Shown here piece after piece: positions 12,723 through 33,048 of a DNA stretch of 35,479 nucleotides. A model generated the notes under the pieces. That model searched no databases. It was not told where the DNA came from and was given only the letters and a program-made list of their open reading frames with translations. The stretch comes from Methanococcoides sp. EBM-47 (GTDB lineage Archaea > Halobacteriota > Methanosarcinia > Methanosarcinales > Methanosarcinaceae). The position numbers and the translations under genes are program-made. Numbering within the stretch: the stretch's first letter is position 1; the number at the start of each line of letters is the position of its first letter. The DNA lies in NCBI GenBank assembly GCA_001896725.1, contig MPPA01000008.1, positions 1-35,479 of the forward strand, read 5' to 3'.

Positions 12723-14099
12723 ATGGTAAAAAGAGGAGAAACATCAGGTAAAAAACTCTTGATCATCGGGGGCGGTGCAGTTGGCATGGCGGTATCAACC
12801 GGAGCCACAAGATATACCGGCTATGAGGTAATGGTAATATCCGCTGATAAGCATGCATCTTATAGCCAATGCGGCATACCTTACGTTTTTTCAGGTGATA
12901 TACCTAACTTTGAACAATTAATAGTTAAAGGGCCTGAATTCTTCAAGGAAATGGGTATCAAAGTCAGGCTTGATACTCGAGTAGACTCTATTGACCTTGA
13001 CAACAGTTCGATAAGGATTGGCAACGAAAAGTTAGCCTTTGATAAGCTTGTGATAGCTACAGGAAGCATACCAGCTATACCTAAAATTATAGAAAAGAGT
13101 AGCTCTTTGAAGAATGTGTTCACCCTGCGTACACTATCCGACGGTATACTGATCCGCGAAGCTCTGAACAATGCAAAGGATATTGTTATCATAGGTGCTG
13201 GTTCCATTGGTGCCGAAGTTTCCATAGCCACTGCACGTCAGGGAATAAGAACTTCATTATTGAACAGGAGCAATACGATCCTTTCATCCAGTCTTGATCC
13301 TGATATGGCAGAAGTAGTTATATCATATCTGGAAGAGGAGGGGGTTCAGGTATTGACTGGATACGCTCCTACATCCATCAATGGTGAAGAGAGCGTCATA
13401 TCGGTAATAGTGAATGAAATAGAGATACCTGCTGATGTTGTGTTGATCTCAGTTGGTGTGATCCCTGATGTTTCTATAGCATCAGAGAGCGGAATAGATA
13501 TTGGACCCACTGGAGGAATAGTCACAAATGACAGACTTCAAGTCATGAGAAATGGAAATGTCATTGAAGATGTGTACTCCGGAGGAGAATGCACCCAGAT
13601 ATACAATTTTGTGACAGGTGAACCCATGCTTAGCCATCTGGCAAGCACGGCGCGCAGAATGGCAGGGGTGATAACCAATAATCTGGGAGGTAAGGATACA
13701 AGATTTGGCCCTGTGGCCAATCCTTGGGTAGCAGTGATCGGAAACCTCCAGATAGGTTCAGTAGGGATTACGACCGCAGAAGCTGAAAAACAGGGGATCA
13801 AGGTTGTCAGTGGTATAGCTACAGGTTCTACACGTGCAGAGTATTTCCCTGGGTCCCACAAAATATATATAAAGGTCCTGTTCCATGAAAGATGCCTGGT
13901 CGGTGCTCAGATAATTTCAACAACCGGCGTCAAAGAGCGTATTGATGGTATTTCTCTGGCAATAAAAAAGAAACAAACAATAGATGAACTGCTTGAGATG
14001 GAAACTTGCTACTCTCCTGCTGTTTCCACACTTCAAGACCCCCTTCTTTTTGCTGTCAAAGGTGCATACAAGAAAATGCCAAAAAAAGGTGGACAATGA
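12723..14099 (+). CDS. CoA-disulfide reductase / NADH oxidase-like flavoprotein
   Basis: A 458-residue FAD/NAD(P)-dependent pyridine nucleotide-disulfide oxidoreductase. The FAD Rossmann motif is IIGGGAVG (14-21), the NAD(P) Rossmann motif is IIGAGSIGAE in the middle, and the FAD-contacting YSGGECTQ follows. The single redox cysteine C50 in YSQCGIPY is the signature of the CoA-disulfide reductase, NADH oxidase and persulfide reductase group, which lacks the CxxxxC pair of glutathione reductase. The C-terminal dimerisation domain is complete. A thiol, disulfide or oxygen-defence role in an anaerobe is likely; the substrate is unproven. Its stop overlaps the rtcA start by 4 bases (ATGA). Confidence 0.85.
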   Translation: MVKRGETSGKKLLIIGGGAVGMAVSTGATRYTGYEVMVISADKHASYSQCGIPYVFSGDIPNFEQLIVKGPEFFKEMGIKVRLDTRVDSIDLDNSSIRIGNEKLAFDKLVIATGSIPAIPKIIEKSSSLKNVFTLRTLSDGILIREALNNAKDIVIIGAGSIGAEVSIATARQGIRTSLLNRSNTILSSSLDPDMAEVVISYLEEEGVQVLTGYAPTSINGEESVISVIVNEIEIPADVVLISVGVIPDVSIASESGIDIGPTGGIVTNDRLQVMRNGNVIEDVYSGGECTQIYNFVTGEPMLSHLASTARRMAGVITNNLGGKDTRFGPVANPWVAVIGNLQIGSVGITTAEAEKQGIKVVSGIATGSTRAEYFPGSHKIYIKVLFHERCLVGAQIISTTGVKERIDGISLAIKKKQTIDELLEMETCYSPAVSTLQDPLLFAVKGAYKKMPKKGGQ

Positions 14100-15091
14100 T
14101 AGATATCGATGGGTCCTATGGGGAAGGTGGGGGACAGATACTGAGGACAGCTATTTCTTTGGCAAGCATTGGATCAATAGAAGTGAGAATATTTAACATC
14201 AGATCTCATCGACCCCAGCCGGGACTTAAGGCACAGCATATGAAAGCGATAGAAACTGCTGCAAAGCTCTGTGATGCTGAAGTTTTAGGACTGTATATGG
14301 GTTCTCAGGAGATCATCTATTCTCCAATGGAAATAAAGGGGGCTGCATATAAAGTGGACATTGGAACTGCTGGAAGCATCTCACTGCTGCTTCAGTGTAT
14401 AATGCCTATGGCAGCATTCTCTAAAGGAGATATATCACTTGAGATCACCGGTGGGACCGATGTGAAATGGTCCCCTACTATGGACTATCTCAACAACGTG
14501 ACATGTAATGCACTTAAACAAATGGGATTTAACTATAGAATAGAAGTTCTGAAAAGGGGATACTATCCAGAAGGAGGGGGAAAAGTATGCGCATCCTTTG
14601 AACCTGCAAGGCTGCACGGGTTCGAATATGAAAGAAAGGAAGAGATCATTAAGGGAATATCACACTCATCAAAACTTCCTGAACATATATCACAGCGCCA
14701 GGCCCTGGCAGCTAAAAGAGTGCTGGATAACAGAGGGATAGAATGCGATATAACTGTATGTACTAAAGATGAAGTTTCAACAGGAAGCGGGATCACGTTA
14801 TGGAGTGGATACAATGGTGCCAGTAATCTTGGAAGGAAAGGTATTCCTGCCGAAAAGATTGGAGAGATGGCTGCTAAGCAAATGATACAACAGATCGATT
14901 CCAAAGCCTCGGTAGACCCTTATCTTGCAGATCAGCTAATTACCTATATGGGCCTTGTAGGAAGTGGGTCTTTCACCACTTACATGGTATCACAGCACAC
15001 ACTGACGAATATACATATAACTGAACTGCTTTTGGATATAGAGTTCGAAATTAGAAAAAAGGGAAAACTTGCTGAGATCTCAGTTAAATAA
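14096..15091 (+). CDS. rtcA: RNA 3'-terminal phosphate cyclase
   Basis: A 331-residue RtcA that uses ATP to convert RNA 3'-phosphate ends to 2',3'-cyclic phosphates through an enzyme-AMP intermediate. The N-terminal GSYGEGGGQ (6-14), HRPQPGLKAQH and RGYYPEGGG motifs match. The adenylated histidine is H301 in SQHTLTN near the C-terminus. The start is the ATG at 14096, which overlaps the upstream stop and has GGTGG just before it; the open frame extends further upstream, but that part is the previous gene read in another frame. Its convergent neighbour encodes KptA, another enzyme acting on RNA 2'-phosphates. Confidence 0.93.
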   Translation: MIDIDGSYGEGGGQILRTAISLASIGSIEVRIFNIRSHRPQPGLKAQHMKAIETAAKLCDAEVLGLYMGSQEIIYSPMEIKGAAYKVDIGTAGSISLLLQCIMPMAAFSKGDISLEITGGTDVKWSPTMDYLNNVTCNALKQMGFNYRIEVLKRGYYPEGGGKVCASFEPARLHGFEYERKEEIIKGISHSSKLPEHISQRQALAAKRVLDNRGIECDITVCTKDEVSTGSGITLWSGYNGASNLGRKGIPAEKIGEMAAKQMIQQIDSKASVDPYLADQLITYMGLVGSGSFTTYMVSQHTLTNIHITELLLDIEFEIRKKGKLAEISVK

Positions 15092-15111
15092 GATGAAGGA
15101 AGCTATCTGGA

Positions 15112-15747
15112 TCAGCTACCATTCTCAACTACGCTTAGGTATTCAGCCGGAATGAATCTTGCAAGGGCGATGTCCTCATTGGCGGTAATTACCATTATTC
15201 CTTCGTTCTGTGCAGAATCAGCATCTACCTCAAGTATTACAGGATTATCAGTGTGTACAAGTGCAGCTTCCACAGCTTTATCATAAGAAGTGCTAAGATG
15301 TGCATAGGTTTGCCTGATAGGTGTAATACCGCTTTCCAGCAACATATCAACCTCTTCCTGGCTGACGCCATAATAAAGTAATGGAAGTTCATTTTCGGGA
15401 TAATCTGACTCAAGCTCTACATCTACAGAATGGCCATATTTTGCCCTTATGTGTTTACCATCTATCTCATACCTGTGCTTTCTGTCAGACTTGACAAGAG
15501 CAATGAGCCTTTCCTTGGTGGCCCACCTATAGCGTGTGCTCAGAACATCCAGAAGATGTCCCAGGCTAACCCAGCCATAGATGTCCATTTTAAGACCCAC
15601 ATCTTCAGGGAAATGCCTCAGTGCTCCAGAAACAAATTTCCCCAGGCGCTCTTCGCGGTCATCATCAAGGACGTATCGGCCTTCCACACCGCATGCCGGG
15701 CATGTCTCACCTCGGAAATATCCATGCTCATTGCATTTACGGATCAT
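15112..15747 (-). CDS. kptA: RNA 2'-phosphotransferase KptA/Tpt1
   Basis: A 211-residue KptA that transfers an internal RNA 2'-phosphate to NAD+, releasing nicotinamide and ADP-ribose 1'',2''-cyclic phosphate. The family's Arg-His-Arg-Arg set can be read as R44 and H45 in LRHFPEDVGL, R101 in IRAKYGHS and R145 in PIRQTYAHLS. An N-terminal zinc knuckle (C5, H8, C16, C19) precedes the domain, as in some archaeal members. The usual HGT triplet is YGV here (LLYYGVS). A TATA element (15774-15784, minus strand) is close upstream. Archaea have no known tRNA-splicing 2'-phosphate, so the physiological substrate is open; reversal of RtcA-type or other 2'-phosphate marks is possible. Confidence 0.88.
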   Translation of the reverse strand: MIRKCNEHGYFRGETCPACGVEGRYVLDDDREERLGKFVSGALRHFPEDVGLKMDIYGWVSLGHLLDVLSTRYRWATKERLIALVKSDRKHRYEIDGKHIRAKYGHSVDVELESDYPENELPLLYYGVSQEEVDMLLESGITPIRQTYAHLSTSYDKAVEAALVHTDNPVILEVDADSAQNEGIMVITANEDIALARFIPAEYLSVVENGS

Positions 15748-15773
15748 GATATATCGGTCTTGAGATGTAATTA

Positions 15774-15786
15774 ATCGTTAATATAT
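15774..15786. promoter_or_regulatory. shared TATA region between kptA and the RPA gene
   Basis: The AT-rich stretch around TTAATATATG reads as a box A on both strands. On the minus strand it is about 27 bases before the kptA start. On the plus strand it would give a transcript with a leader of roughly 110 bases before the RPA start at 15920. Confidence 0.4.
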
Positions 15787-15919
15787 GTTATCAAAGCAAA
15801 GGGGAGCTATGATAATAGTTTCGTCAGATTTAATACATACTCATGCTATCACGTTACGCACAACCAAGAGATTAACTTGTGAGCAAATGCTCCCAATAAT
15901 AAATTTCCAGGGAATTAGC

Positions 15920-17047
15920 ATGAACGGGATAGATGAGATCTACTCAAAACTTAGTAAATCTATAGTTAAAGAAGAATTTGTTGAAAAGGTAAATGCAAAA
16001 GTAGAACAGATGGGAGGCCTATGTGATGAAAAGACAGCTGCCATGCTGGTGGCACACGATCTGGGATTAAATGAAACTGCAAGGTCTTCACAAAAAATAG
16101 CCGACATAAAAAGTGACAGTGGAAATGTAAATTTTATTGCAAAGGTAGTATCCATTTTTCCCACAAGAGAGTTCACACGCGGTGATGGCACAACAGGAAG
16201 AGTTGGAAATCTTCTGGTGGCAGATGAAACCGGGAGTATAAGAATAACAATATGGGATGAAAAAGCAGACCTGGTCAATAAGGGCTTCATTGAAATGAAT
16301 CAGAATCTACAGATAAGCGGTTATGTAAAGGAAGGATATTCAGGCATTGAAGTGAACGTAGGTAACAACGGAGTGTTATCCCAAACTGATGAAGAAATAC
16401 ATGTCAAAGACCCTTCAACTAAGATCTCAGACATTAAAGATGGTATGGGAAGCATTAACGTGGTTGGAAGATTGCTTGATATCTCAGATATCCGCAGCTT
16501 TAACAGGAAAGATGGATCAAAAGGTCGCGTGGGCAATGTAACTATTGGTGATGATACTGGTAAAATAAGGATAACACTATGGGATGACAAGGCGGATAAA
16601 ATGACAGAGCTTTGCCCTGGAGATGCAATAGAGATAATCAATGGTTATGCAAGGTCGAACAACTTTAACCAACAGGTAGAGATACAGATCGGTAATCATG
16701 GCCTGATAAGAAAGACCGAAATCTCTGTCAAGTATCAGGAAAATTTTACAGCCATTGAAGATATCATACCTGGAGAATCCTATTCCATACAGGGTTCTGT
16801 ATCTGGACTGGGAGAAATAAGGGAGTTCAACAGGGACGATGGCACAGTTAACATGGTCTCAAATATATATGTTTCCGATGACACTGGCAGAATAAGAATA
16901 GCCATGTGGGCAGACCATGCATTACTGGTAGATGAACTTGATATCGATACACCGATACAGATCATAGATGCTTATGCAAAATCAGGCTTTAATGAAGATG
17001 TCGAACTCAGTGCAGGAAACCGGACACGGATAATCATCAACCCATGA
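15920..17047 (+). CDS. replication factor A, three OB folds
   Basis: A 375-residue single-stranded DNA-binding protein. A helical N-terminal region (1-50) is followed by three repeated OB folds at about 60-155, 170-265 and 278-375. Each contains the same core, for example FNRKDGSKGRVGN followed by DDTGKIRITLWDDKAD. No zinc finger is present. It probably coats ssDNA in replication and repair. I chose the ATG at 15920 because it has an AGGGAAT-type ribosome binding site and starts the conserved helical region. The frame is open back to 15785, but that extension has no binding site and an unlikely composition. It is followed, on the same strand, by the CBS gene array. Confidence 0.88.
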   Translation: MNGIDEIYSKLSKSIVKEEFVEKVNAKVEQMGGLCDEKTAAMLVAHDLGLNETARSSQKIADIKSDSGNVNFIAKVVSIFPTREFTRGDGTTGRVGNLLVADETGSIRITIWDEKADLVNKGFIEMNQNLQISGYVKEGYSGIEVNVGNNGVLSQTDEEIHVKDPSTKISDIKDGMGSINVVGRLLDISDIRSFNRKDGSKGRVGNVTIGDDTGKIRITLWDDKADKMTELCPGDAIEIINGYARSNNFNQQVEIQIGNHGLIRKTEISVKYQENFTAIEDIIPGESYSIQGSVSGLGEIREFNRDDGTVNMVSNIYVSDDTGRIRIAMWADHALLVDELDIDTPIQIIDAYAKSGFNEDVELSAGNRTRIIINP

Positions 17048-17105
17048 TGAACTTTCAGAAGATGATAGTCATTCTGCCACTGTTCTTTAGAATGTGGTCT
17101 ACGAA

Positions 17106-17117
17106 CACCTATATATA
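17106..17117 (+). promoter_or_regulatory. TATA box upstream of the CBS gene array
   Basis: ACCTATATATAC lies about 65 bases before the first CBS gene start. The 136-base gap after the RPA gene and this box suggest that the array has its own promoter. Confidence 0.45.
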
Positions 17118-17183
17118 CAATAACTAATAACATTTATTTGTGGGCAATCACTTTCCTTAAAAATAATTGGAGCGTGTTATGCA

Positions 17184-17795
17184 ATGGTTTTGGGTGCACA
17201 ATGGAACCTTGGGACTGACACATCTATCAATAAGGTTCGCAAGGAGATGTCAGTTCGGGAAATAATGACCAGTAGTGTGGTTGTTGCAAATATCAATTCT
17301 AGTGTTCTTGAAATTGCCCAGGAGATGATCAGCCAGAAAGTAGGCAGTGTGATCATCACTGATAATGATGATAATCCTGTGGGAATAATAACAGAGACGG
17401 ACATCATCAGCAAAGTGGTGATCAATAACATGGTGCCAAGCACAGTTATGGCAGGTACGATCATGTCTTCTCCCATCATAGCAACAAAACCATCAACAGG
17501 AGTTATAGAAGCTGCAGAACAGATGACCAGGTGCAACATCCGCAGGCTTGCAGTGAAAGATGGTGATAAGATAGTAGCTATCATCACGGACAGGGATATC
17601 CTTACAATATCACCTAGTCTCAACACTATTCTGGAAAGTCTGATCGAACTGCATCGGGATGAGAATAGCTTTGTGGACGAATCGGGGATAGAAAGAGGGA
17701 TATGCCAAAGATGCGGTGCATATACAGACCTTACCCTGATGAACGGACTTATGCTCTGTGAAGACTGCAAAGAAGAAGAAGGCTATTACGATTAG
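17184..17795 (+). CDS. CBS-pair protein with C-terminal zinc ribbon
   Basis: A 203-residue protein with two CBS motifs (about 22-80 and 90-145), together one Bateman module of the kind that binds adenosine nucleotides or SAM. A C-terminal zinc ribbon has C174-x2-C177 and C192-x2-C195 (CQRCGAY and CEDC). The ribbon suggests contact with a nucleic acid or protein partner. The ATG at 17184 has GGAG 11 bases upstream; an inner ATG at 17247 (MSVREIM) is a second possibility. It is the first of five successive CBS genes, 42 bases before the next. Ligand and target are unknown. Confidence 0.85.
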   Translation: MVLGAQWNLGTDTSINKVRKEMSVREIMTSSVVVANINSSVLEIAQEMISQKVGSVIITDNDDNPVGIITETDIISKVVINNMVPSTVMAGTIMSSPIIATKPSTGVIEAAEQMTRCNIRRLAVKDGDKIVAIITDRDILTISPSLNTILESLIELHRDENSFVDESGIERGICQRCGAYTDLTLMNGLMLCEDCKEEEGYYD

Positions 17796-17837
17796 TCGTG
17801 TATCAATTGACCTGCCCATTCTTAATGGAGGATATCT

Positions 17838-18626
17838 ATGACAGTAGAGAGGATAATGTCAAAGGATCCCTTATATGTAAAAGATAGCGATCTTATAACC
17901 CATGCACGTCAAGTTATGCGTGACCATTTTTTGAGAGGGGTACCTGTAGTGAACGATCACATGAAAGTTGGTGGAATACTTACAGATGGGGATATACTTA
18001 AAGTAAAATCCACCAAGTCCAATGTGACAGTAAAAGGATATGTAAAGGAAGTACCAATGATCACACCTGAAATGGAAATACTGAAAGCTGCACGCTTAAT
18101 GCTTGATGCGAATCAGCATAGAGTTCCTGTGGTATCAGGTGTTGACAGACAGCTAATGGGGATCATAAGTGACGCAGATATACTGGCAGCTGTCAGGCCA
18201 ACAAAAAAGTCTCCTCCATACATTGAAGAGATCATGGTGACAGATGTGATTAGCTGCTATCCGGATGATAGTGTAACCAAGGTCTGGCATCAAATGCTTG
18301 AACATGATTATACTGGAATACCCGTGGTATCACACACCAATGAAACTGTTGGGATGGTGACCAGAAGAGATATCATAAAAGCAGGTTATGCAAGAGTGGG
18401 AGAAGTTGATGGACGGGGTGCAAAAGCCGGTGATGCACCTAAAGTGGAAAAGGTTATGTCCACTCCCATGTACACCTTACCCCCGGAGGCTTCAGTGAAA
18501 GAGGCCATTGATAAGATCCTGCAATATGATATTGGCAGGATAGCCGTAGCCAGCAATAAGAAGTTGTTAGGTGTCGTAAGCAGGTCTGCATTATTGTCTG
18601 CCTGCCTTGTAGGCACAGGTTTCTAA
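17838..18626 (+). CDS. four-CBS-domain protein
   Basis: A 262-residue soluble protein made almost entirely of four CBS motifs, at about 1-55, 68-118, 128-182 and 201-255, forming two Bateman modules. Typical strands are GVPVVND, HRVPVVSG, TGIPVVSH and IGRIAVAS, each followed by a GIxTxxD-type helix start. There is no attached catalytic or channel domain, so it is a stand-alone sensor or regulatory subunit. The start is supported by a strong GGAGG site 7 bases upstream. No member of this array shows which partner it controls. Confidence 0.87.
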   Translation: MTVERIMSKDPLYVKDSDLITHARQVMRDHFLRGVPVVNDHMKVGGILTDGDILKVKSTKSNVTVKGYVKEVPMITPEMEILKAARLMLDANQHRVPVVSGVDRQLMGIISDADILAAVRPTKKSPPYIEEIMVTDVISCYPDDSVTKVWHQMLEHDYTGIPVVSHTNETVGMVTRRDIIKAGYARVGEVDGRGAKAGDAPKVEKVMSTPMYTLPPEASVKEAIDKILQYDIGRIAVASNKKLLGVVSRSALLSACLVGTGF

Positions 18627-18742
18627 ATCTGGCGAAACTATAGTACAAAAAATGAGGACCTTTTCTTTTTGGTCCCTGAAAGTAGTTGAACAGTGAACAT
18701 TTTATTGTACCGGTGGTTGAATTGACAAAAAAGAGAACAGAT

Positions 18743-19711
18743 ATGGTCACAGCAGATAGATCAAGGTTCAAGAACAACATGGAATACAAGAGCAAAAGTA
18801 AAAAGGACCCTAGTATGATTAGCAGTACAAGTACTATGGATGTGTCACCTGTTGAATTCAAGGCAAAAGCTGCAGAAAAGAAAGGTGATATGAGTATTGT
18901 GGCCAAGAAAGACGTGATCACCCTTCCTCCCACAACAACGATCATGGGTGCGATAAGAACGATGACGAATAAAGGTTTTAGAAGAGTGCCGATCGCAGAT
19001 GCTGGGACAAAACGTCTTGAAGGAATAATTACCTCGATGGATGTTGTAAACTTCCTTGGAGGCGGCTCAAAGAACCTACTTGTCAAAAAGTATTATAAAG
19101 GAAACCTTCTGGCAGCTATCAATGCTGATGTGAGCGAGATCATGCAACGTGATGTAGCCTTTCTTGTCTCCAAGGCAAGCATTTTCGATGCAGTGGAAAT
19201 GATGATCCAGAGAAATACAGGAGGATTGCCTGTAGTTAATGAAGATAACAGAGTATGCGGCATATTCACGGAAAGAGATTTTCTGGAGCTGATGGCAGAT
19301 ACCATTGATTATGACTCTGTTAGGAACTACATGAGCACAAAAGTAAAAACCGTTCCTTTCGATGCTACTATAGAGGACGCAGCAAAGATAATGGTCAGTA
19401 AGGGTTTCAGACGATTGCCTATTGCAAAAGATGGTATATTGATAGGTATTGTTACTGCATCTAACATTATGAATTTCTTGGGGAGCGGAAAAGCCTTTGA
19501 AAAGATCATAACAGGTAATTTCCGTGAAGCTTTCAGTGAACCAATAACCTCACTTATAAACAAGGATGTCGTATGGGCCCCACCTGAGATGGACCTGGGA
19601 GATGCTGCAAGATTGATGATAGAGAAAAAAGTAGGTTGTCTGCCAGTAATCGATAATGATGTTCTCTGCGGTATAATTACTGAAAGAGACCTCCTGAAAG
19701 CCGTCTATTAA
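18743..19711 (+). CDS. four-CBS-domain protein with charged N-terminal tail
   Basis: A 322-residue protein. The first 48 residues are charged, rich in Lys, Ser and Met, and probably disordered. Four CBS motifs follow at about 50-106, 126-186, 192-248 and 266-322, with GFRRVPIAD, TGGLPVVNE, GFRRLPIAK and VGCLPVIDN. The first and third motifs are alike (both GFRR and NFLG), as are the second and fourth (both CGIxTERD), which indicates duplication of a CBS pair. The start is uncertain: ATG 18743 has only a weak GAGA site, while a GTG at 18713 and a TTG at 18686 are in frame. A GGACC/GGTCC stem with a T-rich loop lies just upstream. Confidence 0.8.
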   Translation: MVTADRSRFKNNMEYKSKSKKDPSMISSTSTMDVSPVEFKAKAAEKKGDMSIVAKKDVITLPPTTTIMGAIRTMTNKGFRRVPIADAGTKRLEGIITSMDVVNFLGGGSKNLLVKKYYKGNLLAAINADVSEIMQRDVAFLVSKASIFDAVEMMIQRNTGGLPVVNEDNRVCGIFTERDFLELMADTIDYDSVRNYMSTKVKTVPFDATIEDAAKIMVSKGFRRLPIAKDGILIGIVTASNIMNFLGSGKAFEKIITGNFREAFSEPITSLINKDVVWAPPEMDLGDAARLMIEKKVGCLPVIDNDVLCGIITERDLLKAVY

Positions 19712-19760
19712 AAGGCGAAGAACAGCTATCAATTAATATAACGACCATTGGAGGAAGTAA

Positions 19761-20609
19761 ATGAGCGTTTCAGATATAATGAGCTCTCCAGTTTTCGTAG
19801 TGGAACCTGATGAGCCAGTATCACGTGCAAGGAATCTGATGTTGAAACACAGGATCAGTACGGTTGTTGTTGCTGATGGTGATAAAATGCTGGGTATCCT
19901 CTCACAGACTGACCTGAGCAGAAAACTTGCCCAGGCAGAACCTGTCTGGAGAAGGCGCCCCATAGATAAGATCCCAGTAAGCATGGTGATGACAGAGGAC
20001 CCAATAACTATCTATCCAGAAGCTTCGATATCCCAAGCCGGGAATCTCATGTTAGAGAACAACATCAACTACCTAGCGGTGATGAAAAAGGGACTTGTTG
20101 GCATAGTAACAGGTACTGATATCGTCAGATATATCTCCAAGCTTGATGAAGAAAAGTTAGATAAGAAAGTATATGAGATTATGTCTGACGAGCCTGTTCG
20201 TATACACATGCATCATACCATTAACCATGCGATAGAGGAGATGGAGAAAAATAATGTGGATGAAGTCCTGGTTGTTGATGATGCTGAAAAAGTAGTAGGA
20301 TTGATATCCTTTAACAATGTTGCCCTTAACATAGTAGCAAGTTCTGATAAAGAGGTCCCTACAAAGAATATCAAGATGACCAGACGTGCTACATCCGGTG
20401 GACAGAAGGTATATAGGTACATAAAAGAAGTGCCCCTGGTTGCTGAAGATATCATGTCATATATCAGTACTATTGTGAAGTGGGGTGATTCGGCAATTGA
20501 GGCTGCAAAGCTCATTGTAGAGGATGATTCAAGGGTCCTGCCGGTAGAAAAGGATAACGAGATCGTTGGTGTCATCCGGAGAAAGGATCTGATAAGGATA
20601 GCGAAGTGA
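19761..20609 (+). CDS. four-CBS-domain protein
   Basis: A 282-residue protein with four CBS motifs at about 1-56, 71-128, 138-194 and 228-281. It begins directly with MSVSDIMSSPVF, a classical CBS start. A linker of about 30 residues between motifs three and four (rich in Lys, Thr and Arg, ending YIKEVPLVAED) is longer than in the neighbouring proteins. The ATG is supported by GGAGG 7 bases upstream. It is the fourth gene of the array, 49 bases after the third and 36 bases before the fifth. It is presumably cytoplasmic and binds nucleotides; the partner is unknown. Confidence 0.86.
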   Translation: MSVSDIMSSPVFVVEPDEPVSRARNLMLKHRISTVVVADGDKMLGILSQTDLSRKLAQAEPVWRRRPIDKIPVSMVMTEDPITIYPEASISQAGNLMLENNINYLAVMKKGLVGIVTGTDIVRYISKLDEEKLDKKVYEIMSDEPVRIHMHHTINHAIEEMEKNNVDEVLVVDDAEKVVGLISFNNVALNIVASSDKEVPTKNIKMTRRATSGGQKVYRYIKEVPLVAEDIMSYISTIVKWGDSAIEAAKLIVEDDSRVLPVEKDNEIVGVIRRKDLIRIAK

Positions 20610-20645
20610 AGGAACAAAAGCTAATACAACCTGAAGGTGAAAGAC

Positions 20646-21422
20646 ATGGAAGTAAAGGACATAATGACAGAACCACCAACTATCAGTAAATCGGACACTC
20701 TTTCCCATGCGCTTGATATTATGGAAAAGAAAGAAATGCGTCGGGCCCTTGTGAAACAAGGTGATAAGATAGTTGGTATCCTTACTATGAGAAACCTCAC
20801 AAGAGAACTCGGGACCAGAAAGAAGGGAAATATGCCTGCATCCTCGCTTCACGTGGCAACAGCTGTTTCTGATAACTTTGTGAAGGTCTTCCCGGATGTC
20901 AAGGTAAAGGATGCTGTCACACTCATTGATAAGAATCAGGGAGTTATCATTGTCTGCAAGGATGAGAAGGTCGTGGGTTGGGTCACACCTACAGAACTAC
21001 TGAGTACTGACAACTTCAATGGCTTTGCAGGAGAGTTCATGCAAAAAGAAACTGTGATCGCAAGCCCTGGTGACCGCGTGAGCCATATCAGGCGCCTGAT
21101 GCTGGACAAAAATGTAGGAAGGATCCCTATCACAGAAAATGGTAAACTGGTGGGGATTGTCACCGAAAAAGATGTTGTTAAGGCCATGAGGGCTTTCAGG
21201 GATATAGTATCAGGAAATCAGCAGGAAGCCAGGATAAAGAATCTGATCGTTGCAGATATCATGAAGAGGAGTGTAATGACAGTTAATACGAACACCTCTC
21301 TTTCAGATGTGGCAAAGATGATGCTCGCAGAGAACATAGGAGGTCTTCCTGTACTAAATCTTGAAGGAGAGTTCGTAGGATTTATCACCAGAAGGAACCT
21401 GGTACATGCAATGGCACAGTGA
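20646..21422 (+). CDS. four-CBS-domain protein next to RNA ligase
   Basis: A 258-residue protein with four CBS motifs at about 1-55, 66-120, 126-180 and 201-256, opening with [12 protein letters not shown]. The ATG at 20646 is preferred because AAGGTGA lies at the right distance; a GTG at 20637 would overlap that site. The second motif ([16 protein letters not shown]) is divergent. Its stop is 2 bases before the ATG of the RNA ligase gene, or overlaps a GTG start by 4 bases. This is the closest coupling of any CBS gene here to an enzyme gene, which makes the ligase the best candidate for a regulated partner. Confidence 0.86.
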
Positions 21423-21424
21423 AC

Positions 21425-22591
21425 ATGGATAACTATCCACAAACAGAGCTGAACGTTGAGGATGCTGCATCTTTCCTGAAAATCCCTGTTCAGCAGATGA
21501 AGGAATTGATAGAAAGAAAAGTGTTGGTACCTAACTGGAACGAGTACCAACACTTATTCCGTTTTGAACGTAAGTCTATACGTATCGATATTGGAAGTGT
21601 TCTTGTACAAAAGGACGATGGTTTCAATCTTATTCTTGGATTTCCAAAGATCAAAAGAGCAATGCTGCTTGGGCCTGCCATCAAGTTCAATTTCAGTGAT
21701 ATAAAGAAGATAGCAGTAGAAGAGAAAATGAATGGATACAATGTAAGAGTGATCTTACTGGATGGGAAGCTCATAGCACTTACGCGCAAGGGTTATGTAT
21801 GCCCTTATTCTTCAGAGAAGGTTAATGATCTGCTAGACCATAGTTTTTTCGTCGAGAACCCACAACTTGTGGTATATGGAGAAATGGTAGGTCCCGATAA
21901 TCCTTACGTACCTAAGGGAATATATGGTATTGAATCACTGGAGCTCTTTGTTTTTGATATAAGGCAGAAAGACACGGGTGTACCTTTACCACTGTATGAG
22001 CGAAGGAGACTTGCTGAAAAATATGGCTTCAGACAGGTCAGACTTTTCGGAGAGTTCAGTATCCAGGAAGCTCCTTCCATGATCATGAACATCATCCAGG
22101 AAATTGGGAGAAAAGGACATGAAGGAGTGGTGATCAAGGACCCGAATATGGTATTGCAACCAATCAAATACACTGCTTCTCAGAGTAATTGTTCAGATCT
22201 CCAGCACGCCCTGAAAATATATAATGAAAGTGGAAGAGATTTCATATTTTCCAGAATAGTCAGAGAAGGTTTCCAGTCAGTAGAATGGGATGAAAATGAG
22301 GAGGATTTCAGAAAACGTTGTCTTCGGTTAGGTGAAAGTATCCTGAGACCTATGAAAGAGTCCATAGTGCATGTAAGGGAGGGAGGGAGAGTTGCAGAAG
22401 AATTCACTATCAGAGTGAAAGACAGAGCAACCATATCAAAGTTCGAAGAATATATGAGAAGGCTTGGAATGGACATAGTGTTCAGTGAGCCTAAGACCGT
22501 GGGCGATGAATATCTTGTACATATGAAAAAGGTAAGTAAGAGCACCAGTGATAAGACACTGGCCATGTGGGAAGGCCAGCTGTGGTCATGA
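21425..22591 (+). CDS. ATP-dependent RNA ligase, Rnl3 family
   Basis: A 388-residue nucleotidyltransferase of the archaeal Rnl3 (Pab1020-like) family, which seals or circularises RNA. The adenylated lysine is K101 in EEKMNGYNVR (motif I, KxxG-like). Motif III is VVYGEMVG (E153), motif IV is GHEGVVIKDP (E233, K238) and motif V is QPIKYT (K248). The N-terminal 85 residues and the helical C-terminal domain (from about 255) match the family layout. An in-frame GTG at 21419 would overlap the preceding CBS gene by 4 bases; ATG 21425 is taken as start. It sits between a CBS sensor and a GTPase gene. Confidence 0.85.
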   Translation: MDNYPQTELNVEDAASFLKIPVQQMKELIERKVLVPNWNEYQHLFRFERKSIRIDIGSVLVQKDDGFNLILGFPKIKRAMLLGPAIKFNFSDIKKIAVEEKMNGYNVRVILLDGKLIALTRKGYVCPYSSEKVNDLLDHSFFVENPQLVVYGEMVGPDNPYVPKGIYGIESLELFVFDIRQKDTGVPLPLYERRRLAEKYGFRQVRLFGEFSIQEAPSMIMNIIQEIGRKGHEGVVIKDPNMVLQPIKYTASQSNCSDLQHALKIYNESGRDFIFSRIVREGFQSVEWDENEEDFRKRCLRLGESILRPMKESIVHVREGGRVAEEFTIRVKDRATISKFEEYMRRLGMDIVFSEPKTVGDEYLVHMKKVSKSTSDKTLAMWEGQLWS

Positions 22592-22646
22592 AAAAAGATA
22601 TATCTATATGGAGTATTCGTAACCCCCATAAATACCAGGTGCCAAT

Positions 22647-23681
22647 ATGACAAAGATCACTATAATAGGGAGTCAGCAAAGTGGGAAGACAACGCTTGCT
22701 GCAAAACTGGGAAAGAAAGGTAATGTATCAGACTTCACAATGTATGATTTTGCCAAAGGCGATAAGATAATGACCATCATAGATCCCACTGGATATCCGG
22801 TTTCTGTTAAGCCATTGATATCCTCGCTTAATCTTTCCGATATTGCCGTCCTATGTGTGCCCCCCACTGGCTTGGATGCTTACGCAGGGGAATGCATCAT
22901 CTGCCTGGAGTGTATGGGCTACAGGCATGGTCTTGTACTGCTCACAAAATCTGACACCACTTATCTGCAGGCAATCGATGAATTAAAGACGAAATTACAG
23001 AAGATCACAAAGGACACTGTGATTGAGAATTGGGAGCATATGACAATCTCTACTAAAACCTTTGATGGTATGGAAGAACTCAAGGAAAAGATATTCAGTA
23101 TGGGTGAAATGATCGATGAAGAAAATCGGAAGAAGGCCACCTTACCAACAAGAGTTATAATAGATCAATCTTTCAATGTCACTGGGATCGGATGTGTTGT
23201 GCTTGGTGTTGTGATACAGGGTACTATCAATGTAAAAGACAAAATGATAGCTTATCCCACCAGGAAGCCTTTGGAGATCAGATCGATACAGATGCACGAT
23301 GTAAATGTTAAAACTGCATCCACCGGAGCAAGAGTGGGCCTTGCCCTTAAGGGAATACAATCAAAGGATATAGACAGAGGCCATGTTCTTTCCCTTGAGG
23401 AAATGGTCAGTGATGAACTTAGAATCAAATGTAAGCTCTCACCCTTTTCCAAAGGTTTCAATACTGGGAGCATGCTGCATGTATTCGCTGGGTTGCAATC
23501 GTCTCCAATGAGAGTTACTAGCATAGCAGAAAATGGGAACATGGTGGAAAAAGCTTCTCCTGGGAAAGAATATACCCTTCAGTTGATGGGTACGAAAGAA
23601 ATTTCCTATTCTCAGTCAGAAAGGTTCATACTTACGGATCTGGACGAAAAACAAAGGTTCTTAGGCTTTGGTTCCCTTTGA
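22647..23681 (+). CDS. divergent EF-Tu/SelB-like GTPase
   Basis: A 344-residue relative of translational GTPases. G1 is GSQQSGKTT (8-16), G3 is DPTG (46-49) where elongation factors have DxPGH, and G4 is TKSD (100-103) instead of NKxD. Only about 30 residues separate G1 from G3, too few for a normal switch I. The histidine after DxPG, needed for EF-Tu GTP hydrolysis, is replaced by tyrosine. From about residue 145 a domain II beta barrel (FNVTGIGCVVLGVVIQGTI) and a domain III-like segment follow. It could be a ribosome or tRNA-binding factor without normal GTPase cycling. It is probably the last gene of the CBS-ligase transcript, 55 bases after the ligase; a TATA-like stretch near 22597-22610 could drive it separately. 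Confidence 0.75.
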   Translation: MTKITIIGSQQSGKTTLAAKLGKKGNVSDFTMYDFAKGDKIMTIIDPTGYPVSVKPLISSLNLSDIAVLCVPPTGLDAYAGECIICLECMGYRHGLVLLTKSDTTYLQAIDELKTKLQKITKDTVIENWEHMTISTKTFDGMEELKEKIFSMGEMIDEENRKKATLPTRVIIDQSFNVTGIGCVVLGVVIQGTINVKDKMIAYPTRKPLEIRSIQMHDVNVKTASTGARVGLALKGIQSKDIDRGHVLSLEEMVSDELRIKCKLSPFSKGFNTGSMLHVFAGLQSSPMRVTSIAENGNMVEKASPGKEYTLQLMGTKEISYSQSERFILTDLDEKQRFLGFGSL

Positions 23682-23687
23682 ACACGA

Positions 23688-24191
23688 TCATTTTTTAGGA
23701 GAAAGGTGCTTGATACCATCCAGCATGGACGGTCTTTCTACTGCTTTTGTAAGAGATGTGTTCTCAGGAAGATCTGTAAACTGGGGTCTTTCTAAAGGAG
23801 CCGGAGAACTTTCCTGAAAAGTATTTCTTTTTCTAAAGGAATTGTCAATACCTGAGATATTATAAGATTGCGGGAACAGTACGGATGCAGACTCTGATAA
23901 TGTTTTATCCTTATCTGTTGCTCTTCTGAAGAGCCCTGCTTTCATGTCACGTTCTCTAGTTCTGGCACCCTCTGATCGCCCAGTTTCATAGTATTCCCTG
24001 ACAGGCTGTCCCAGATCACCTTGGGATGCAAACTCGTAAAGTGAGTTGAACCTTTCCTTTACCCATCCGATCTCTGAATGTTTATGATAACCCACCTCAA
24101 AGCCCAGTTCATAAGAGCTCTTTATGAGTGTCTGTTTCTGAGGTTCGGTGAGCTTTCTTTTATTTTCCTTTTTCTTAAAGATCTTGACCAT
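23688..24191 (-). CDS. hypothetical protein paired with KaiC-like ATPase
   Basis: A 167-residue protein that I do not recognise. The N-terminus is strongly basic (MVKIFKKKENKRKLTEPQK). Residues 20-80 look helical, with KSSYELGFEVGYHKHSEIGW and a YEFASQGDLG segment. The last 80 residues are polar and probably disordered (rich in Ser, Pro, Arg). There is no signal peptide or membrane segment. Its ATG is 12 bases after the stop of the KaiC-like gene, so the two form an operon and may form a complex. It ends 6 bases from the convergent GTPase gene. Confidence 0.65.
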   Translation of the reverse strand: MVKIFKKKENKRKLTEPQKQTLIKSSYELGFEVGYHKHSEIGWVKERFNSLYEFASQGDLGQPVREYYETGRSEGARTRERDMKAGLFRRATDKDKTLSESASVLFPQSYNISGIDNSFRKRNTFQESSPAPLERPQFTDLPENTSLTKAVERPSMLDGIKHLSPKK

Positions 24192-24203
24192 TGGACCAAT
24201 CCA

Positions 24204-24947
24204 TTATTCCAGATATCCTTCGATCTTCAGGCCCCTATCAGTGAACTGCACTGTGCGCATGTTACAATCATGCTTTGTTCCTCTCATTTTGATAATTTGT
24301 ATGGCTCTGGTCATATTCTTATCGTAGAGAAAATTATGCATGAAGATGACGCCATGTGCTGCAAACTGCTCTGTTGAGTAGGCTGTCGGATCGGTCAGCT
24401 CTCCTATCAATATTGTGGTGCAGCCAAGCTTTTTAAGATTACGTATGAACCTTGTCATTTCCTTTTCCTGTAAAGAAAGGTCCTTTGTTGTAAAACGGAT
24501 GGCTGATACGGAATCCAATACAAGTCTTTTTACATCATATTCAGCTACATAAGCAGCAACTTCCTTAAATACCATTGCAGGTGAAGGAGCTTCACTTTCA
24601 AGAGAAGTTCTGCTGACCTGATAATGAGATAGTTCTGACCCATTGAATTCGTCCATATACCCATATTCCATTCTTGGACCCAGGTCCGCGAACAGGAGTT
24701 TCCTCATTTTTATAAGTGGGATGACGTTCATTGAATAATTGGACATATCATCAATGATGTTCTGAGGACTTTCCAGTAAGGTCACATACAGACCTACATC
24801 GCCAAGCGCAGCACCGTGAGCAAGGAATTGTACACCAAATGTAGTTTTACCACTACCTGGGGGGCCACTTACAAGATAAACCCTTTCAGAGAGCAAACCT
24901 CCCTGCATAAGTTCATCAAAACCTTCGATTCCAGTTTGTATTCTCAT
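24204..24947 (-). CDS. KaiC/RadA-superfamily ATPase, single domain
   Basis: A 247-residue RecA-fold ATPase of the KaiC/GvpD/Rad55-like group. It opens with RIQTGIEGFDELMQGGLL, typical of KaiC domains. Walker A is GPPGSGKTT (28-36) and Walker B is RLVLDSVSA (D145). The catalytic glutamate position is E59 in LYVTLLESPQ, where KaiC usually has two adjacent glutamates. A single RecA domain is present without a helix-hairpin-helix or second KaiC domain. Members of this group in archaea act in signalling and motility, but this one has no such neighbours. It is transcribed with the unknown gene downstream and divergently from the SpoIIM-family gene. Confidence 0.85.
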   Translation of the reverse strand: MRIQTGIEGFDELMQGGLLSERVYLVSGPPGSGKTTFGVQFLAHGAALGDVGLYVTLLESPQNIIDDMSNYSMNVIPLIKMRKLLFADLGPRMEYGYMDEFNGSELSHYQVSRTSLESEAPSPAMVFKEVAAYVAEYDVKRLVLDSVSAIRFTTKDLSLQEKEMTRFIRNLKKLGCTTILIGELTDPTAYSTEQFAAHGVIFMHNFLYDKNMTRAIQIIKMRGTKHDCNMRTVQFTDRGLKIEGYLE

Positions 24948-32971: not shown

Positions 32972-33048
32972 GGGCCGGTAGCTTAGCCAGGCAGAGCGAC
33001 GGACTCTTAATCCGTAGGCCAAGGGTTCAACTCCCTTCCGGCTCGCCA
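32972..33048 (+). tRNA. tRNA-Lys (anticodon CUU)
   Basis: The cloverleaf is complete. The acceptor GGGCCGG (32972-32978) pairs with CCGGCTC (33038-33044) with one G-U pair. The anticodon stem ACGGA/TCCGT encloses the loop CTCTTAA, giving anticodon CTT for lysine AAG codons. The T arm is AAGGG-TTCAACT-CCCTT. The discriminator is G, followed by an encoded CCA at 33046-33048. No intron is present. Confidence 0.95.

What the first reader, a model, noticed from the sequence alone, without database searches (positions are those of the whole stretch)
14096..23681. Candidate nucleotide-sensing RNA-end repair neighbourhood
Within 10 kb lie RtcA (ATP), KptA (NAD+), an ATP-dependent RNA ligase, a degenerate translational GTPase, an ssDNA-binding protein and five CBS proteins of the class that senses AMP, ATP, NAD or SAM. 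The ligase gene is separated from a CBS gene by only 2 bases. A plausible idea is that adenylate-charge sensors gate RNA healing and sealing, perhaps of tRNA or rRNA damaged under stress, with the GTPase acting on the ribosome or tRNA.
Basis: partly seen in the sequence, partly recalled or inferred. Interest (0 to 1): 0.6.

Follow-up and report, generated by a model that had tools for sequence, protein, structure and literature searches.

The report
Ribosome-hibernation CBS genes with RNA ligase
In this methane-making archaeon, and across its phylum, five genes for CBS proteins (relatives of four of them have been solved bound to ribosomes) sit in a fixed order directly in front of an RNA-sealing enzyme, which suggests one gene set that puts ribosomes to sleep and mends their RNA.

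Summary
The genes are there as described. The core is a co-directional run of five CBS genes, an Rnl3-type RNA ligase and an aSelBL GTPase (17184-23681).

In Halobacteriota, at least 109 of 112 non-haloarchaeal ligase genomes have the ligase downstream of the CBS array on the same strand, often with ATGA stop/start overlap. RtcA, KptA, RPA and aSelBL accompany it mainly in the window's own family, so 'RNA-end repair neighbourhood' is too broad.

The CBS genes are not generic sensors. CBS2-CBS5 each match one-to-one a chain in PDB entries 9ZNF, 9ZNG and 9ZNI, which carry the Methanosarcina acetivorans uL2 sequence. CBS2+CBS3 occur in one entry, CBS4+CBS5 in another. A 2026 paper assigns such CBS modules to archaeal ribosome hibernation. 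CBS1 (two CBS domains plus a Zn ribbon) nearly always accompanies them. The five-gene array also persists in ligase-less families, so gating the ligase cannot be its main job.

Best reading: a ribosome-dormancy array with an appended RNA ligase that probably repairs or processes rRNA or sRNA of stored ribosomes. CBS-ligase-aSelBL adjacency in Methanosarcinales was mentioned in 2011. I found no earlier report of the phylum-wide link to hibernation factors.

The parts
17184..17795 (+). CBS1: two CBS domains plus C-terminal four-cysteine Zn ribbon (Ta0289-like layout); constant first gene of the array
   Evidence: (four invariant Cys)
17838..18626 (+). CBS2: four-CBS module; ortholog is chain 4 of PDB 9ZNF
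   Evidence: (7.4e-74)
18686..19711 (+). CBS3: four-CBS module (MJ1225-like); ortholog is chain 5 of PDB 9ZNF
   Evidence: (3.1e-101; MJ1225 1.1e-61)
19761..20609 (+). CBS4: four-CBS module; ortholog is chain 6 of PDB 9ZNI; profile also matches the C-terminal half of Dri (9E6Q)
   Evidence: (1.7e-91)
20637..21422 (+). CBS5: four-CBS module; ortholog is chain 7 of PDB 9ZNI and 9ZNG; directly upstream of the ligase
   Evidence: (7.7e-103)
21425..22591 (+). Rnl3-type ATP-dependent RNA ligase (alternative GTG start at 21419)
   Evidence: TIGR01209 1.3e-113; MthRnl 5D1O 6.8e-82
22647..23681 (+). aSelBL, SelB-like GTPase with catalytic His replaced by Tyr; linked to the array mainly in the window's family
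   Evidence: (M. mazei protein 3WNB 1.5e-109)
17110..17117 (+). TATA-like stretch about 70 bases upstream of CBS1, possible promoter (by eye, untested)
15785..17047 (+). RPA-type ssDNA-binding protein; neighbour within the family only
15112..15747 (-). KptA; opposite strand, neighbour in some genera of the family only
14093..15091 (+). RtcA; neighbour in some genera of the family only

Best explanation
A ribosome-dormancy and ribosome-RNA-maintenance gene set. CBS2-CBS5 are AMPK-gamma-like four-CBS modules that bind ribosomes, probably in pairs (CBS2+CBS3 and CBS4+CBS5), and keep them inactive and protected when energy is low; CBS1, with a Zn ribbon, is a constant fifth partner, perhaps the regulator. 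The downstream Rnl3 RNA ligase is expressed with them and most likely seals breaks in, or finishes processing of, the RNA of stored ribosomes (or circularises the C/D sRNAs that modify it). In this family aSelBL is added downstream. Shown: gene order, orthology, adjacency, stop/start overlap, and orthologs as chains of ribosome structures. Inferred: dormancy role in this organism, nucleotide control, and the ligase's substrate.
For: CBS2, CBS3, CBS4 and CBS5 match full length and one-to-one 9znf_4, 9znf_5, 9zni_6 and 9zni_7/9zng_7. Those entries share their uL2 sequence with 9NRI/9NTA/9O17/9OU7, which are M. acetivorans ribosomes (PMC12605026). 9zni_7 is 82-94% identical to CBS5 of Methanosarcina-type loci where the array precedes the ligase. 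PMC13324472 identifies CBS modules as archaeal hibernation factors, with CM-1 and CM-4 in dormant M. acetivorans ribosomes. The CBS array sits upstream of the ligase in at least 109 of 112 non-haloarchaeal ligase genomes, with ATGA overlap in several families. Apart from ligase and CBS genes, no gene family near the ligase is shared by more than 4 of 14 sampled groups. Each CBS position is one clade at 100% bootstrap. Deleting Rnl in T. kodakarensis changes 23S fragments near the sarcin-ricin loop and C/D sRNA circles (PMC9014305).
Against: The ligase is dispensable for the array: many families have CBS1-5 without it. The ligase also occurs without CBS neighbours in haloarchaea and Methanococci, and HARP is the other reported partner (PMC12153264). 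In Methanosarcina the CBS5-ligase gap is over 1 kb, so co-transcription is not universal. Ligase action on ribosomes of this lineage is unproven, and HibA showed no clear effect of AMP or ATP on ribosome binding (PMC13324472). I read only sequences and chain names for 9ZNF/9ZNG/9ZNI, not their publication or binding sites.
Confidence: 0.6

Rival explanations
1. Adenylate-gated RNA repair: the CBS proteins bind the ligase and switch it on or off with the AMP/ATP ratio.
For: Ligase directly behind CBS5, or CBS3 in Archaeoglobaceae, with ATGA overlap; ribose-type Asp signature conserved in most domains of CBS1-CBS4; the ligase uses ATP.
Against: Complete arrays without ligase; ligase without CBS in haloarchaea and Methanococci; the neighbouring CBS protein differs by lineage (CBS5 or CBS3); CBS5, the gene next to the ligase, has the most degenerate nucleotide signatures; orthologs of CBS2-5 are found on ribosomes.
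Confidence: 0.15
2. Shared regulation only: the ligase (C/D sRNA circles, other RNA) is merely expressed with the hibernation genes under stress, without acting on ribosomes.
For: The ligase lives without the array elsewhere; rnl deletion removes circular C/D sRNAs (PMC9014305); Methanosarcina loci are loosely spaced.
Against: Order kept despite wide gaps in Methanosarcina, ATGA overlap in distant families, and no other partner equally conserved.
Confidence: 0.22
3. Ordinary RNA healing/sealing cluster of RtcA, KptA and ligase, with the CBS genes as bystanders.
For: Proximity in several genera of the window's family.
Against: RtcA and KptA are missing from the neighbourhood in Methanosarcina and in all other families mapped, while CBS stays; KptA is on the opposite strand.
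Confidence: 0.03

Closest known systems
CBS-module (CM) ribosome hibernation factors of archaea: HibA, Dri, standalone CM-1/2/4/5 (PMC13324472)
   Same: Four-CBS modules; orthologs of CBS2-5 are chains in ribosome structures; gene clustering of CM genes is reported there
   Different: No HPF/RaiA domain (unlike HibA), no fusion (unlike Dri); the paper does not mention a ligase; CBS1 with a Zn ribbon is a two-CBS protein of the kind its module search mostly left out
Rnl3 archaeal RNA ligase (MthRnl, Pab1020, TK1545)
   Same: TIGR01209 equivalog, Lig_C domain, invariant EEK[ML]NGYN motif I
   Different: Reported genomic partner is HARP (PMC12153264); here HARP is elsewhere in the genome and the CBS array is the partner
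aSelBL (M. mazei MM1309)
   Same: Closest solved structure 3WNB; catalytic His replaced by Tyr
   Different: P-loop Lys retained here, Arg in MM1309 (PMC4329189)
CBS/ligase/aSelBL adjacency in Methanosarcinales (Atkinson 2011, PMC3037878)
   Same: The same three gene types in the same order, noted in one sentence
   Different: That paper called it a DNA ligase, did not go beyond Methanosarcinales and gave no ribosome link for the CBS gene

Membership tests
Archaeal CBS-module hibernation factors (CM type) | Four CBS domains (two Bateman pairs) and little else | tested here: met
   CBS2-CBS5: four domains each; CBS1 has two and does not meet it
Archaeal CBS-module hibernation factors (CM type) | Ortholog found on archaeal ribosomes | tested here: met
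   9ZNF, 9ZNG, 9ZNI chains in entries that also hold uL2; no match of this kind for CBS1
Archaeal CBS-module hibernation factors (CM type) | Inhibits translation or preserves ribosomes in dormancy | not testable with these tools
   needs experiment
HibA | C-terminal HPF/RaiA domain | tested here: not met
   only CBS domains found in CBS2-5
Dri | two CBS modules fused in one chain | tested here: not met
   modules are separate genes, though the CBS4 profile matches the Dri C-terminal half
Rnl3 RNA ligase | TIGR01209 above cut-off, Lig_C domain, motif I lysine | tested here: met
   379.6 bits against cut-off 136.9, PF18330, invariant K in A1
Rnl3-HARP pair | HARP gene within 5 kb of the ligase | tested here: not met
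   HARP on another contig, C10:155646
aSelBL | SelB-like domains with disrupted GTPase motifs | tested here: met
   DPTGYP in place of a D-x-P-G-H type motif
RtcA/KptA/ligase RNA-repair operon | co-directional and conserved together | tested here: not met
   KptA reversed; RtcA and KptA linked only in some genera of one family
Adenylate-sensing CBS proteins | conserved G-h-x-T/S-x-x-D ribose motif | tested here: inconclusive
   near-invariant in CBS1 and in most domains of CBS2-CBS4, mostly lost in CBS5; binding not tested

The most novel reading that the evidence does not exclude
Archaea of this phylum encode a combined ribosome storage-and-repair operon: paired CBS modules shut and shield the ribosome, and a translationally coupled RNA ligase reseals rRNA breaks (for example near the sarcin-ricin loop) in stored ribosomes before they are reused, with the CBS/Zn-ribbon protein CBS1 as the controller.
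Probability: 0.3. Interest if true: 0.85.

Novelty: new variant of a known kind. Interest (0 to 1): 0.6.

Why it matters
The cellular job of Rnl3 ligases and the partners of archaeal CBS hibernation modules are both open questions. A phylum-wide, partly translationally coupled link between them turns both into one testable hypothesis: that archaea mend the RNA of sleeping ribosomes. It also names a fifth, overlooked protein (CBS1, CBS plus Zn ribbon) and predicts which CBS proteins act in pairs.

Tried and rejected
HARP as local partner: elsewhere in the genome, although a PIN_5/HARP-type gene does sit by the ligase in sampled haloarchaea. RtcA/KptA as part of the unit: rejected. Other neighbours shared across families: OapB, OapC, a GTPase, DUF1464 and ArgZ-like genes, each confined to one or a few families. 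Non-coding RNAs in the region: only tRNA-Lys at 32972. Methanobacteria (remembered ligase MTH1221 with MTH1222-1226 CBS genes; memory only) could not be reached; a paper search gave nothing. Methanococci lack CBS next to the ligase. Structure prediction was not used because direct PDB orthologs exist and complexes cannot be modelled with the tool.

Full report
What is in the window. The window is contig C40 of a 2.18 Mb, 53-contig genome. From memory of its chromosome length, I take a same-genus genome (G169) to be Methanomethylovorans hollandica, so the host is probably a Methanomethylovorans; this is not a test. The co-directional block runs from CBS1 (17184) to the SelB-like GTPase (23681), with gaps of at most 59 bases. 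CBS5 ends in TGA at 21420-21422 and the ligase ATG is at 21425, or a GTG at 21419 overlaps the stop. KptA is on the other strand and RtcA lies 2 kb upstream of CBS1.

Is the neighbourhood conserved? I mapped 60 ligase loci of the phylum and then compared coordinates of the ligase, CBS5 and CBS3 over the same sample of 296 genomes. Of 125 genomes with the ligase, 107 have CBS5 (66) or CBS3 (41) directly upstream on the same strand. Two more are seen in the maps (L072, L090). Thirteen are haloarchaea without CBS neighbours. One is split between contigs (G214) and two fell below the printed list (G176, G196). So at least 109 of 112 non-haloarchaeal ligase genomes keep the link. The array is CBS1-2-3-4-5-ligase in most genera of the window's family, in the families labelled f2, f3, f12, f18 and f26 and in one of two f30 loci, and CBS1-CBS3-ligase in Archaeoglobaceae. 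ATGA stop/start overlaps occur in Archaeoglobaceae, in two f3 genomes and in one f30 genome.

What else is conserved? Apart from ligase and CBS genes, no gene family near the ligase is shared by more than 4 of 14 sampled groups. RtcA and KptA accompany the array only in some genera of the window's family, and the RPA gene in that family. aSelBL lies downstream of the ligase in that family; single looser cases occur in one f3 and one Methanococci genome. HARP, the published Rnl3 partner (PMC12153264), is elsewhere in this genome.

The array without the ligase. Of 18 array loci fetched from genomes without a ligase hit, 14 (families f5, f8, f11, f13, f14, f16, f18, f21, f22) have the complete CBS1-2-3-4-5 order; the other four are partial. 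In a tree of 81 proteins each of CBS2, CBS3, CBS4 and CBS5 is a single clade with 100% bootstrap. The array is therefore an old set of distinct proteins whose main function cannot depend on the ligase.

What the CBS proteins are. CBS2, CBS3, CBS4 and CBS5 match, full length and one-to-one, chain 4 and chain 5 of PDB 9ZNF, chain 6 of 9ZNI and chain 7 of 9ZNI/9ZNG. These entries share an identical uL2 with 9NRI, 9NTA, 9O17 and 9OU7, which are M. acetivorans ribosomes (PMC12605026). The printed 9ZNI chain 7 sequence is 82-94% identical to CBS5 in Methanosarcina-type loci, where the array precedes the ligase. A 2026 study names CBS modules as archaeal hibernation factors, reports that they often cluster, and notes CM-1 and CM-4 in dormant M. 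acetivorans ribosomes (PMC13324472); it does not mention a ligase. The CBS4 profile matches the C-terminal half of Dri. The PDB pairing fits gene order (2+3, 4+5). In four genus-g6 genomes CBS2 and CBS3 lie side by side at a second locus while CBS4-CBS5-ligase stays.

CBS1. It has two CBS domains and four invariant cysteines in C-x2-C pairs, the layout of Ta0289. It is present in nearly every array, including the shortened ones, but has no ribosome-bound match of its own. It is the least understood constant member.

Nucleotide sensing. The G-h-x-T/S-x-x-D signature is nearly invariant in CBS1 and in most domains of CBS2-CBS4, and mostly lost in CBS5, the gene next to the ligase. Energy sensing is plausible but untested; HibA binds AMP and ATP without a clear effect on ribosome binding (PMC13324472).

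How it most likely works. Shown: orthology, order, adjacency, overlap, and orthologs as chains of ribosome structures. Inferred: under low energy, pairs of CBS modules occupy the ribosome and protect it; the ligase, made with them, acts on RNA of stored ribosomes. The best outside support is the T. kodakarensis ligase deletion, where 23S fragments near the sarcin-ricin loop and 16S 5'-end fragments appear and C/D sRNA circles are lost or reduced (PMC9014305). Shared regulation without direct action on ribosomes, and CBS gating of the ligase, remain as rivals. aSelBL may add a tRNA-related function in this family (M. mazei MM1309 binds Cys-tRNA, PMC4329189).

Novelty. Each component is known, and the CBS/ligase/aSelBL adjacency in Methanosarcinales was mentioned in 2011 (PMC3037878). 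I found no paper in the searched library that links Rnl3 to the CBS hibernation array or shows the phylum-wide conservation. Most subscription papers and all preprints are outside that library.

Noticed in passing
G234, G246, G250, G258 (genus g6, same family); L037, L038, L040: In four g6 genomes CBS2 and CBS3 lie together at a second locus while CBS1-CBS4-CBS5-ligase stays; in nine others CBS2 is elsewhere and CBS3 is not detected at the 1e-60 cut-off. A natural split along the CBS2+3 / CBS4+5 pairs seen in PDB entries.
   Followed up: partly
Methanosarcina-type loci, e.g. L041, L042, L143, L196: Order CBS1-5-ligase-aSelBL is kept although intergenic gaps grow to several hundred or over 1000 bases, so the order persists without tight packing.
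   Followed up: partly
window 17184-17795: CBS1 combines two CBS domains with a four-cysteine Zn ribbon and is in nearly every array, yet has no known role.
   Followed up: partly
G031, G039, G092, G242, G199, G275 (genus g5): Ligase matches in genus g5 contain one in-frame TAG; in L033 the first open start lies well inside the usual N-terminus. Could be pyrrolysine (UAG) read-through in a methylotrophic methanogen.
   Followed up: no
G131, G224, G112 (genus g7): Ligase matches in three genus-g7 genomes carry one in-frame TGA in the table.
   Followed up: no
L065 9457-10152 and similar haloarchaeal loci: A HARP-type PIN_5 gene lies divergently next to the ligase in sampled haloarchaea, as published, where the CBS array is absent.
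   Followed up: partly
L067 2796-4239 and matching loci in families f12, f18, f30: A GTPase, OapB and OapC genes lie divergently just upstream of the CBS array in four deep families.
   Followed up: no
window 23688-24947 (-): A 167-aa protein of unknown function and a RecA/KaiC-like ATPase follow the array on the other strand in several genera of the family.
   Followed up: no
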